Notes under the pieces: generated by a model
The model's database searches: none
Seen by the model: the letters and a program-made list of their open reading frames with translations, nothing else
Told to the model about the DNA's origin: nothing
NCBI GenBank assembly: GCA_027579435.1
Contig: JANBPK010000739.1
Coordinates: 159,535 to 223,534 of the forward strand
From: Candolleomyces eurysporus
Taxonomy: Eukaryota; Basidiomycota; Agaricomycetes; Agaricales; Psathyrellaceae
Direction: 5' to 3'
Length of the DNA: 64,000 nt
Made by a program: the position numbers and the translations under genes
Part shown: positions 4,401-15,693 of the stretch, one piece after another
Layout: each line of letters opens with the position of its first letter
Position numbering within the stretch: the stretch's first letter is position 1

Positions 4401-7400
4401 CTAACCTCCAGCAGTCAAGCAAACCGCCCTCATGGAGACCAAGGGTCCTGCGCTGCGATCAAATGGCAGATTAATAGTGAAGAGGACGTCGGCACGGTCA
4501 CTGTTGAGGTATACCGGCAGGTTGACTCCCTTGGATGCTTCATCAGACTGGACCCATCGAATTTGCGAAGGATTCAGCTTGACTGTCTCCCCATCGTTGA
4601 GCATAAGTTGGTCATTCATCCATGATGCACCTTCCAGCGCAAGACCTGCGTATACATGGTCAATATCAACCACTAATGAAACAGTAAATCGAAATCTTAC
4701 CGTCAACGATAAAGGCGGATGGGTCATTCACTCTTTCAATATCAAGGCAGAGGCTCAGCGTTTCCAAGCTCCACTTCTTTCGATGGGCAACAGCTTGGCG
4801 AGTAGCAGTGATGAAAGCTTCTGGGAAGAACAGGCCTCCGAGCCAGACCTCAACATGGGAGAGCGAGTCCAGAGAGGCGATATCATCCAGTTGCTTCAGC
4901 CGTCTAGCGAAGTTTGCAATCCACCCAGACACTCCCATGCTCTTGCTGACTTTGTATCGTCTCCAATGGTCCGGAATAGTCCCTGAAGAATCGAGTTGTT
5001 AGTCACAAACCCAGGATCAACGGCGATGCGGACATACCCTTGGTGAGAGAGCTGATCAACGTTCGGAGATGGTTTGTCTGCTTCAGCTCCCCTCTACACA
5101 CTTTGACGACATCTGCGAGGTCTCTGCGAACCTGATCCAAGAGCTTTCGACCGATGGAGCCCTCGCGAGCAAACAACCGATACAGAGGATCTTGGTGTTC
5201 GGCCGGCTGAGGCGGAAGCATGTTGAATTTATGTGGCAGCAGGTCGAGCCATTCCTTGCATCGCTCCAGCAAACTTCTCATCCAGGCTGGTTGCTGAGAT
5301 CCTTGGGATTTGGTGGCGGTAGTTGCACCGGCCTCCTCGTCATCGTCAGCCAACATCCTCATCTTGCGCAACTTGCTCAAAAGCTCATTTCCTATTAAGA
5401 GGGTTAGTTTCGAAGGTGCCTTGAATTCAGTCCCATCAAAGCAACATACCTTGAGCAACAGCGATAACTCTTTCTGCTGTGGGTGGCAAGCTGAGCCATG
5501 AAGGGGGTTCGCGGTCGGGAAGGCTTTGTACCCAGCTCAAGAAGTGTTCCAACTTGGTACCATCCGGGGACGTCAGTAGGTGCTCGCCAGCGACTGAAGG
5601 GACAAGCTCGAAGTCGACGTTGTATGCAGCGGGGGTGAAGAGGGAGTCAACAAAGGAATCAAGGATACGTTGGTCGAAGTCACTGTCAACGCGTCCACCA
5701 TACACCGACTGCTTGATCAACGTTCTCAAAGCGTCCCAAGGAATAGTGGCAGGATCGATGTTGGCGCGGCCCCTCGATACGGAGTTGAGCCATGTGTCGA
5801 TGGTGCCGAAGGCGGATGACATGTCCGAGTCGTTGAAATCGTACACCTTGCTCCATCCGAGAGGAGCATACCGCAGTCGCTCCTGAACAACGGCATGGAA
5901 CCATGCAAGCAAGAAGTAGAGTCGGACCTTCTCGGCCGGCCCTTGGGAGAGGCGCGTGGGTGGAATGCTGCGAAGAGAATCGACGAGATTGGCTTTGACA
6001 CCTGGTGGGGGTTCGTTCATGATCAGGCGGGATTGCCGAAGGATGTTGACGGGGATTGACGGATTGATTTCCAGGGTAAGGAAGAGTCGGAAGTTGGGAT
6101 GAGGGTTGAGAGTCTGGAGTTTCTTCTCAAGCTGTCCAAGCCAGGATGGTGCAAGATGAACGTTCTTCAACAGTACCCATGTACCTTGCCGTGAGGCTGT
6201 AGCAATGGCTTGATCGGCGAGGGTGAAACCTTCCTGAGAGCCCATGGCAACTGAGGAGAATCGAGCGCTTGTATTCTTCACCAAATTTTCGACACGATAA
6301 CTGGCGTCGTACCCAGGGACGGAAACCAGGGCGACAGGGGTACTGGAGGGGATTTCATTCGACACAATGGAGCCAAGCTCATAGGTGGATTCGGAGGAAA
6401 GATCGATATTGAATACTGCGCGGGTGAATAGTGTTGTCGATTGGAGAAGGCGATCTGGGCGGAAGCACTTCACAACGAGTAATGATCGGATGGCTTCGAG
6501 TGCCGCTGTATGAAGAGTGATCAGCCTGATGTTATCGCAAACAAAAGTTGGAACTTACGTGTAGCGGGCTCCCAGGCTGGAGGGACATCGGTTTCTGGAT
6601 TGGTTGACTGCAAGAAGCTGATCCAGCGTTCCTCGTTATTGATGAGATGTCCGTGGACAGGTTTGAATATGGAATGCTTGGCGAAGATGTCTAGTCGTGT
6701 TACCTGCTCAGCGGTGAGGAAGGGGAAATCTTGTGGGGAAAGAGAGGAGGTGGAATGGATGCCGTCGCCGCTCTCTAGAAGGAATTCTATCTCGTCGCCA
6801 ATTTCTTCAATGCCTCGTAGCTTAACTTGAGCAAGCAGAACGGCCAACATCAGATGATCGCGGTACAAAAGGGCTCGCGAAGTCCTCTTATAGACAATCA
6901 AGAACAGGTCGTTCAGGAGAATGTCGCGACGAGCGCTGTAGTCGGTGACGCTTTTGAGGTTGGGGTTATGATGCAGGACGTAGTCGAATATGTCCAAGAA
7001 GAAGCGAAGGGAGAATTGATAGAAGTGGTTGATAATGTTGAGTTGTTCCAAGACGAAGAAAACTGAGCTGCATGCCTGTGCGAGAGGAAGATATTCTGCC
7101 GTAACTTGCTCAACCTCCTTCATAATGAGATCTGTTTCCTCCACTTTGCGTGTGATTTCAGCTGCTTCTCGCTTCAAAGTTTCCAGCGTGTCAATGACCT
7201 TGTCGTCGTCCAAAATGTTCCCAGACGATTCGTTGAGAGCTTGCAGCAGCAGCTTCTCCAGGGTTCGGAGACGGAGGCGGAACTCGCCTTGGACCTTCAT
7301 CAAGTCGGTTCTCTTCTTCTCGGTATCTGGGCGCTCGACCTTGAGGACTTGATCTAGCGACTGGCTTTGAAGACTGCTCCTTGTCATGGTGAAGTTGACG

Positions 7401-13400: not shown

Positions 13401-15693
13401 CTTGGTGAATAACATTGAGGGTGCTTTCCGGGGCGACGCCTGATTCCAGAGATGATTCTACCAAAGCTGTCCAAGCGACTTGGATTGCTAAGGTCACCAG
13501 TTGAGCGGGGTATTTCTCCATCCATTCCATGAGCTGTGGCGCAGCGAGTTGATGATCTGGCCCATAGAAACCTTGCAGTTCGGCCACCGAGTCGGAGAGT
13601 AAGTTGGCCAATGAAAGCCTCATCATGGTTTCCAACCTCGCAAGCCAATCGTTGATCTTGGGGTAGTCTTTCAGAAGAATTGGTTCCGTGAAGCGTATTT
13701 CCTCTCCCTCCCGCGAAGACATGCCCATGATTTGGGTTAGATCATCGTCGAGCTGGATAGTTGCGATGCCAGCGAACATCTTCTTCAAGTGCTTCATGAT
13801 CCGCAAAATATCCTTGCTGTTACCGATGATTTCGAGCAAGTCTTCGTCACCAACGAAGTAGAAACGGGGGAAGGAAGACCGCTCCCGCTCGAGATATTCA
13901 CCCAATGCCTTCTGAATCTTGTTCAATAGGTCGGCTAGACGCTCGAGGCTCTTTTGGATTCCTTGGATGTTCATGACGTCGAGGACGAAGGGTGACTTGT
14001 AAACCTTCTTCATCACTGTGAGGAACTCGCTGTTGATGTTCGAAAATCGTGCGCTCTCGACAGGAAGGAGGTGTTTGATGTCCGCGCTGCCGGAAAAGAT
14101 GCCTTCAAGGTACACCCATTGGCGCTGTACGTCGATCCACACATCTGAGGCCTAAGGTCAGAAAAAAGGAGGGCAGCGAGAAAGAGATAAACTAATACCG
14201 AATAGGACGTGGATCCTGTTCAACTTCTCTTCCCATGAACCTGCCTGAAAGGGGGTTGAGCACCGCTACGGGGAAAGGTTAACTTTACATACTTCCTCTT
14301 CGAAGACTGGATAAAAAAGAGAGTGAGAATGAGTTACTGAGTGTTTGGGGTCAGATATCACCTTTGTAGTACGGGGACAACTTCATAGCGGTCAACGAAT
14401 TGAGATTCTCGCTGCACTTGTTGAATAAATCATCCCAGCCCCTGTCGAAGTGTTAAAACAGACCCGTTGAAATGTGTAACATACTCCGTACTTGATCAAT
14501 CGGCATTTATTCTGGTAGTTGACTAGGTCGAGGGTGTAGTTTGTCCAGACTTCTCTGACCTGCTTGATGTATTCTTCGAGGGCCATCTTTCCAGAGGTCA
14601 AAAATCAGTTCTGGAGACAATCGACCGTACTCACCTCGCCCTGAGCTTGTATGATAACCTCTTTGATCAAGGTCTCGTTTCTCTTCAAGTCCATGTCATA
14701 AACATGGCCCAAGGTCATCCTAAGTGCAGATGTTAGTTACGCAAGGGACACAGGAGGAAACCACTCACAATGGAAGATGTATTTGGGAAGGTAGTCTTAA
14801 GACCTTGAACAACTGCTTCCAATGCCGATCCTTCAACGCCTCCGACTTCAATTCAGAAACCAGGGCATTCGACTTTAGCAGACCCTTGAGCGTGTCCTGG
14901 ACGTACTCGAAGGCCGCGTACTGCCTCATTCGTGTTGGCATATCTTTGGTCGACGTCAGCAACCCGTCTATGTGTTGCCTCAACTTCCTTGGCTGGACGG
15001 TGGCCCAGCTCATTTCTCTCAATTCGCCAATCTGGCTCCAGATTCCGGAAAGTGCTGTCCAGACGGCCTTCAGATCTCGCAGCTCTTCGAAGACGGGTTC
15101 CAATCGCGTGTGTCGTGTCAACTCTAGGTCAAGTGCTTCTTTGGCGCGGCATACGAGGTCGTATTCTTCCTTGACGCGATTCAATTTGCCTTCAAACACG
15201 TTGATGGTGTTCATGGCGGTATCTGCGCGCATGTTGCCTTGAACAGGCCGTGTCTGCTCCCACTCTTGCAGAATATCGTTAATCTTGTTCTCGACGATTT
15301 TGTCTTCGGCGACGATCTTCAATTGCAGGCCAGCTATGAGATGGAGGCGTCAGAGTAGAAAAGAGATGAGTAAACCTGAACACTGTACCGAGCTGCTCCT
15401 GAATGGAATCACTCTTCCTCTTCAAAATCTCGTTGTAGGCGCTCCATTCTCCTCTAAGTTGGTCGCTGTATAGCCAGTCTTCCGGGAATTGGTATCGAAA
15501 CCTTTCCAAGGTCTTCTCCCCGCTGGCACACAGCTCGATCATAGGGCCCCATGCTTTCGTCTTTTTCTTCAAATCTTGTACGAAGGTAATAAAGGTAACA
15601 GCGGCTGCTGTCGATGAGTTGGAAGGTGCAAAGACCTGTAAACCGCGCTGTTAGTGCCAGGGCCTGCGTCAGAGAAAACGTGCTTGCCTCCAT
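4401..15693 (-). CDS. dhc2: Cytoplasmic dynein heavy chain, motor half (Dhc2 type)
   Basis: Carries the ATP-driven, minus-end-directed motor of cytoplasmic dynein. I read 19 exons and 3,451 aa, with all intron phases consistent. In order: linker region (about residues 1-650), AAA1 P-loop GPAGTGKT at about 746-752 (split by an intron at 12979-13031), AAA2 GPSGSGKT at about 1047, AAA3 GPPGSGKT at about 1430, AAA4 GVSGSGKT at about 1764, stalk coiled coil with microtubule-binding tip (about 2010-2340), AAA5, AAA6 and a C-terminal barrel ending LTAGG. The first residues align with about residue 1,250 of animal heavy chains; the dimerising tail that binds intermediate and light intermediate chains is absent and a divergent gene begins 215 bp away. 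Two-gene dynein heavy chains are known in Agaricomycetes. Exon 1 would be only ATG GAG, joined by a GC-AG intron (15636-15687). Exon 7 is 14 nt. The N at 12643 must be dropped to give the AAA1 stretch LPPNLTKLFRP. Confidence 0.95.

What the first reader, a model, noticed from the sequence alone, without database searches (positions are those of the whole stretch)
4401..15693. Dynein heavy chain present only as its motor half
The gene encodes linker, six AAA modules, stalk and C-terminal barrel (3,451 aa), yet begins at the position equivalent to about residue 1,250 of a full heavy chain. The tail that dimerises and carries cargo chains is missing, and the next gene upstream is an unrelated divergent gene (SME1) whose start lies 215 bp away, so the tail cannot be encoded in the adjacent DNA. 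Published work on Schizophyllum commune describes such a two-gene heavy chain (dhc1 tail, dhc2 motor) in Agaricomycetes. The window therefore holds the dhc2 partner, and the motor must be assembled from two polypeptides joined non-covalently in the tail-linker region.
Basis: partly seen in the sequence, partly recalled or inferred. Interest (0 to 1): 0.75.

Follow-up and report, generated by a model that had tools for sequence, protein, structure and literature searches.

The report
Motor half of split mushroom dynein
In this mushroom the large motor protein dynein is made as two separate proteins from two genes; this window holds the motor gene, its tail partner sits elsewhere in the same genome, and the same two-gene arrangement is already known from other mushrooms.

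Summary
Confirmed. The window (Candolleomyces eurysporus, inferred from a contig-length match) carries a 19-exon dynein heavy-chain gene, 15693-4401 (-), that starts where a complete chain would be at human DYNC1H1 residue 1161. The missing tail is a separate gene on contig C1214 (about 179426-175374, minus strand) that aligns to human 25-1159: no gap is left. One locus was found for each half. This is the Agaricomycete dhc1/dhc2 split published in 2015 (PMC4540427), so it is a new member of a known kind. Additions here: the cut matches the start of the human segment (1160-1400) that carries bundles 8/9 and binds the LC8/TCTEX1 tower and dynactin p150, so Dhc2 is motor plus neck. Both new chain ends are conserved: 104 of 116 parsed tail chains end R-[RK]-[FY] behind a variable spacer; 91 of 101 parsed motor chains start ME plus 5-7 residues. 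No named Agaricomycete single chain is among the 120 best tail-bearing long hits. Substitutions fixed in the split clade at otherwise invariant sites are enriched around the cut (8 of 24 within 150 residues; scan p 0.0045), with caveats. Non-covalent assembly is inferred, not shown; the sequence gives no support for trans-splicing.

The parts
4401..15693 (-). dhc2: dynein heavy chain motor half, 19 exons, 3,451 aa
   Evidence: gene model; 99% identical to P0121 and 90% to P0122
15688..15693 (-). exon 1, two codons (Met-Glu)
   Evidence: 91 of 101 parsed relatives (of 120) start with ME and have 7-9 residues before SSTA
15636..15687 (-). intron 1, 52 bp, GC-AG (the other 17 introns are GT-AG)
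   Evidence: by eye no usable GT donor between the ATG and the acceptor (sequence)
14769..15635 (-). exons 2-3, neck (human 1161 to about 1427; helical bundles 8/9)
   Evidence: alignment; binding assignments from PMC7615804
13591..15100 (-). DHC_N2 matches in genomic DNA, in two exon-wise pieces
   Evidence: C1017:174329-174634 and 173125-173679 converted to window coordinates
7898..8896 (-). stalk and microtubule-binding region (MT, PF12777), the only copy found in the genome
   Evidence: C1017:167432-168430 converted
12643..12643 (.). single N in exon 10 that breaks the frame; probably an assembly artefact
15909..16370 (+). SME1 (Sm E), divergent neighbour; end approximate
   Evidence: ATG; LSM
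16545..17574 (-). PEX10-like gene (Pex2_Pex12 plus RING), upstream of dhc2 on the same strand, beyond SME1; ends approximate

Best explanation
The gene is dhc2 of a two-gene cytoplasmic dynein-1 heavy chain. The partner dhc1 (C1214) codes, by homology with human dynein, for the N-terminal dimerisation domain and helical bundles 1-7, with the sites for the intermediate chain (bundles 4-5) and light intermediate chain (bundles 6-7). dhc2 codes for neck bundles 8/9, linker, AAA ring, stalk and C-terminal domain. The cut lies in the short SIEG|SST link before the neck. SHOWN: both genes, one locus found for each, exact complementarity, conservation of both new termini among relatives. INFERRED: the two products bind each other without a covalent bond by packing of the neck against the end of bundle 7; the contact is strengthened by clade-specific residues and possibly by the conserved Dhc1 C-terminal peptide; and the intermediate chain helps to bridge the halves, because its WD40 domain sits on Dhc1 while its LC8/TCTEX1 tower, and dynactin p150, dock on the segment that belongs to Dhc2.
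For: Tail gene elsewhere, sole DHC_N1 gene found; sole DHC_N2 and MT gene found is the window's. Dhc1 aligns to human 25-1159, Dhc2 from 1158 on. Unsplit chains run straight through this point: 63 of 120 matched a strict KAR..SIE.|SST pattern, all 63 with the same spacing; 51 of the other 57 printed an uninterrupted junction (P0280 one residue shorter), 6 were not located. Dhc1 tails: 116 of 120 parsed, 104 of 116 end R[RK][FY], 99 exactly RRF. Dhc2 heads: 101 of 120 parsed, 91 of 101 ME-type. Tail-bearing long-protein search: 120 of 1,500 hits shown, none named as an Agaricomycete, 11 without organism name, best 68% identity, whereas the 120 listed split Dhc1 relatives are 77-98% identical. 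Fixed differences enriched near the cut: 8 of 24 within 150 residues against 122 of 1,938 eligible columns, p 6e-5; scan p 0.0045 with the best window at -99..+126. Human 1160-1230 lies at the IC-LC tower and 1160-1400 binds the p150 ICD (PMC7615804); IC on bundles 4-5, LIC on 6-7 (PMC5473941, passages). In S. commune both products were detected by antibody with 'potential co-localization' (PMC4540427). DLIC (one exon), dynactin p150 and LC8 matches found.
Against: No protein or RNA evidence here. PMC4540427 reports different phenotypes: the dhc1 deletion mates normally, the dhc2 deletion cannot accept nuclei, which a strictly obligate complex would not predict. This genome's own Dhc1 ends RRFS, not RRF, and 12 of 116 relatives lack the exact R[RK][FY] end. 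The enrichment test has weaknesses: the region was picked after a first look; Tremellomycetes and Ustilaginomycotina have significant clusters of fixed changes elsewhere (scan p 0.0185 and below 0.0005); a distance-rank test (split clade p 0.009) was also significant for clades unsplit at this point (Tremellomycetes p 0.005, Ustilaginomycotina p 1e-4); Mucoromycota and allies show 6 of 38 (p 0.027) near the cut at the 0.85 threshold; and Ustilaginomycotina show only weak, window-dependent enrichment before their own split (9 of 46, p 0.043 at 200 residues; not at 100 or 150). Robl, NudE and Tctex profiles gave no hit, possibly because exons are short.
Confidence: 0.88

Rival explanations
1. 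The two transcripts are trans-spliced, or the two proteins ligated, so that the cell still makes one chain.
For: None direct; the cut is exact, with nothing lost, which a joining mechanism would need.
Against: dhc1 has its own stop, and a terminal peptide ending R[RK][FY] lies after the last shared residue in 104 of 116 parsed relatives, which joining would remove or leave useless. By eye no good 5' splice site follows SIEG in the dhc1 DNA. dhc2 relatives have their own conserved Met-Glu start (91 of 101).
Confidence: 0.03
2. Dhc2 also works without Dhc1, with another protein serving as tail in nuclear migration.
For: PMC4540427 proposes this from the differing deletion phenotypes.
Against: No second tail-domain gene was found; by homology Dhc2 lacks the dimerisation domain and the IC and LIC bundles; only one dhc1 mutant was obtained in that paper.
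Confidence: 0.15
3. The window copy is a truncated paralogue or pseudogene and a complete chain exists elsewhere.
For: One frame break (N at 12643) in the assembly.
Against: No other motor or tail gene found; open 3,451-aa frame apart from the N; 99% and 90% identity to P0121 and P0122.
Confidence: 0.01

Closest known systems
Split dynein heavy chain dhc1/dhc2 of Schizophyllum commune and other Agaricomycetes (PMC4540427)
   Same: Same cut (SIEG|SST), near-identical sizes (1180/3450 aa there; about 1184/3451 here), two separate genes
   Different: Different species; here the two genes lie on different contigs, so the published linkage could not be tested. Two published outliers look like old gene models: the current C. 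cinerea Dhc1 record (P0004) ends in RRF, and an S. commune Dhc2 record (P0154) starts MEAFASPN
Dyn1/Dyn2 of Ustilago maydis (described in PMC4540427; original paper not seen)
   Same: Two-gene cytoplasmic dynein heavy chain
   Different: Cut inside AAA4; ustilaginomycete relatives keep SIEG-SST joined in proteins of about 3.0-3.2 kaa
Unsplit cytoplasmic dynein-1 (human DYNC1H1; Phaffia P0242)
   Same: Same domains in the same order once the two products are laid end to end
   Different: One polypeptide; no terminal peptides at the cut

Membership tests
Agaricomycete dhc2 | Chain starts within about 10 residues before SSTAAAV | tested here: met
   MEVFAPSNSSTAAAV
Agaricomycete dhc2 | Separate tail gene ending SIEG plus short tail, in the same genome | tested here: met
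   own tail GLMGGGGGRRFS
Agaricomycete dhc2 | No unsplit heavy chain in the genome | tested here: met
   one locus each; each search scores only the best candidates
Agaricomycete dhc2 | Linkage to dhc1 and to matA | tested here: inconclusive
   dhc1 and dhc2 on different contigs (198 and 224 kb); peptidase M3 (MIP-type) hits on still other contigs
Cytoplasmic dynein-1 heavy chain | Linker, six AAA modules, stalk, C-terminal domain | tested here: met
   on the 90% relative P0122; DHC_N2 and MT also in the window DNA
Two-polypeptide dynein | Physical association of the halves | not testable with these tools
   needs biochemistry

The most novel reading that the evidence does not exclude
The split created a working joint: the Dhc1 C-terminal R-R-F peptide on a flexible spacer docks on the Dhc2 neck beside the LC8-tower site, where the split clade carries its own fixed residues (Cys38, Glu42, Phe48), and the intermediate chain clamps the two. 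Mushrooms could then exchange or release motors from tails, a control step no single-chain dynein has.
Probability: 0.2. Interest if true: 0.75.

Novelty: new member of a known kind. Interest (0 to 1): 0.42.

Why it matters
Dynein's tail-to-motor link carries load, yet mushrooms cut it and appear to have kept it cut. The mapped cut site, the conserved end peptides and the clade-fixed neck residues make the open question of PMC4540427 (what holds the halves together) directly testable.

Tried and rejected
Rejected: start at Met34 as in the C. aberdarensis annotation (P0121). It leaves out SSTAAAV, which 101 of 120 listed relatives have within 40 residues of their start; the cause is probably the tiny first exon and its GC donor. 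Two Hymenochaetales records (P0206, P0215) are annotated as PEX10-Dhc2 fusions; I take these as gene-model errors because the join is at the residue where dhc2 exon 2 starts and the RING match is cut short, but I could not check RNA.

Led nowhere: matA linkage; Robl, NudE and Tctex searches (for NudE and Tctex the tool warned that nothing rang in its controls either); structure prediction of Dhc1 (job failed; closed later), so no structure was predicted. My first dhc1 model missed one intron, seen as an 18-residue gap against P0002, so the typed dhc1 queries contain 18 extra residues and lack the first 20.

Same-contig check: reading the two 120-row lists by eye, 11 of about 50 species present in both have the same longest-contig length for Dhc1 and Dhc2, which suggests one contig; the others differ, some because different strains or fragmented assemblies were used, and in Agaricus bisporus var. 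burnettii the two contigs are both large (1.93 and 3.46 Mb), which would go against the published universal linkage.

Full report
What the window holds. The window is G000:C1017:159535-223534, at the right end of its contig in a 65.9 Mb, 1,296-contig assembly. A database protein from Candolleomyces eurysporus (P0002, hypothetical protein H1R20_g8533, partial) lies on a contig of 198,129 bp, the exact length of own contig C1214, so I take the source to be that species (Agaricales, Psathyrellaceae). The gene at 15693-4401 (-) has 19 exons. Exon 1 is two codons, ATG GAG, followed by a 52-bp intron with a GC donor; the other 17 introns are GT-AG. Three annotated relatives (P0133, P0227, P0205) start MEVS..., which reads as if an intron after ATGGAG had been translated; that suggests the two-codon exon is old (inference from protein records, no DNA seen).

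The partner. A DHC_N1 search of the whole genome found one gene, C1214 about 179426-175374 (-) (2 candidates, both exon pieces of it). Its product is about 1,184 aa after correction of one missed intron. Its start is interrupted in this assembly at a run of C; the 97% identical C. aberdarensis protein (P0001) reads straight through there, so a sequencing error is likely. DHC_N2 and the MT stalk are each found only in the window gene. Light intermediate chain, dynactin p150 and LC8 matches are present; Robl, NudE and Tctex profiles found nothing, which shows little for short exons.

The cut. Dhc1 ends ...LEHHSIEG plus 11 residues; the alignment to human runs to 1159 at the E of SIEG. Dhc2 starts MEVFAPSN then SSTAAAV, with the first S of SST at human 1161. 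In unsplit chains SIE[GTS] runs directly into SST: of 120 proteins 63 matched a strict pattern, all 63 with identical spacing; of the other 57, 51 printed an uninterrupted junction (P0280 one residue shorter) and 6 were not located. PMC7615804 (sections 6 and 8 and passages read) reports that human DHC residues 1160-1400 bind the p150 intercoiled domain, that 1160-1230 lie at the LC8/TCTEX1 tower, and that the tower sits on bundles 8/9. PMC5473941 (passages) puts the intermediate chain on bundles 4-5 and the light intermediate chain on 6-7. The cut therefore falls at the start of the neck, and the intermediate chain is placed to touch both products. That bridge is my inference.

Conservation of the new ends. 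Of the 120 listed Dhc1 relatives, 116 could be parsed; 104 of 116 end R[RK][FY] (99 exactly RRF), with a G/A/P/S-rich middle segment of 0-10 residues in 40 variants; 12 of 116 end otherwise, among them this genome's own RRFS; the 4 unparsed records end within or before this stretch. Of the 120 listed Dhc2 relatives, 101 could be parsed, and 91 of 101 start ME with 7-9 residues before SSTA. A fixed end behind a variable spacer is what a short binding motif looks like. PMC4540427 showed 11 species and suggested that the similarities at the break 'might be involved' in an interaction; the present count extends this.

No reversion seen. A joined query whose search words come from its first 500 residues (the tail) returned 1,500 proteins among 7,977 scored candidates, 120 shown: Pucciniomycotina, Tremellomycetes, Ustilaginomycotina (about 3.0-3.2 kaa), Mucoromycota and other early fungi, and 11 without an organism name, the best at 68% identity. 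A single-chain Agaricomycete should have ranked first, because the listed split tails are 77-98% identical.

Substitutions near the cut. I aligned 115 of 120 Dhc1 and 97 of 120 Dhc2 sequences (those with standard ends) with 105 of 120 chains unsplit at this point (19 Tremellomycetes, 25 Pucciniomycotina, 11 Ustilaginomycotina, 50 Mucoromycota and others; 4 without a located junction and 11 unnamed rows dropped). Of 1,938 columns at least 90% invariant outside the Agaricomycetes, 24 are fixed differently within them; 8 of the 24 lie within 150 residues of the cut, where 122 eligible columns lie (p 6e-5). At threshold 0.85 it is 10 of 39, at 0.95 4 of 13 (p 8e-5 and 0.004). A location-free scan gives p 0.0045 with the best window at -99..+126. 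Controls within 150 residues at 0.9: Tremellomycetes 4 of 43 (p 0.27), Pucciniomycotina 0 of 8, Ustilaginomycotina 1 of 46, Mucoromycota and others 4 of 27 (p 0.07; 6 of 38, p 0.027 at 0.85). Against it: two control clades have strong clusters elsewhere (scan p 0.0185 and below 0.0005), a distance-rank test is not specific, the region was first seen in an exploratory run, and the Ustilago split shows only weak enrichment. I read this as suggestive. Three of the eight sites (Dhc2 Cys38, Glu42, Phe48; human 1190, 1194, 1200) fall in the 1160-1230 tower segment.

What is known. PMC4540427 (text parts 1-4 of 5 read; the last part is references) describes the same split in S. commune and across Agaricomycetes and Dacrymycetes, with deletions in both genes. 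PMC8950801 (passages) cites it and the Ustilago case. The listings of five literature searches showed me no later paper on how the halves are held together; I saw titles and starts of abstracts only, in a library of openly licensed papers. The finding is thus a new member of a known kind, with the cut mapped on recent structures and a testable docking hypothesis.

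Noticed in passing
window 16545-17574 (-) and 15909-16370 (+): PEX10-like gene and SME1 lie upstream of dhc2; two Hymenochaetales records (P0206, P0215) are annotated as PEX10-Dhc2 fusions, so PEX10 and dhc2 look like old neighbours.
   Followed up: partly
window 15687-15636: GC-AG first intron behind a two-codon first exon; gene finders appear to miss it (7 of the 120 listed Dhc2 records start at MIELC).
   Followed up: partly
L005 5866-5927 (C1214 near 179400): Run of C in the dhc1 start breaks the reading frame; NCBI's partial model P0002 bridges it with what looks like a doubtful intron.
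   Followed up: partly
window 894, 3848, 12643, 23134 and 12 other places: 16 single Ns scattered through the window; the one in dhc2 breaks the frame, so others may too.
   Followed up: no
P0004, P0154: Current Coprinopsis cinerea Dhc1 and Schizophyllum commune Dhc2 records have the standard ends, unlike their rows in Table 3 of PMC4540427.
   Followed up: partly
window 56669-58006 (+), 58898-59926 (+): LisH-CTLH protein next to a DNA gyrase B/topoisomerase II-type gene.
   Followed up: no
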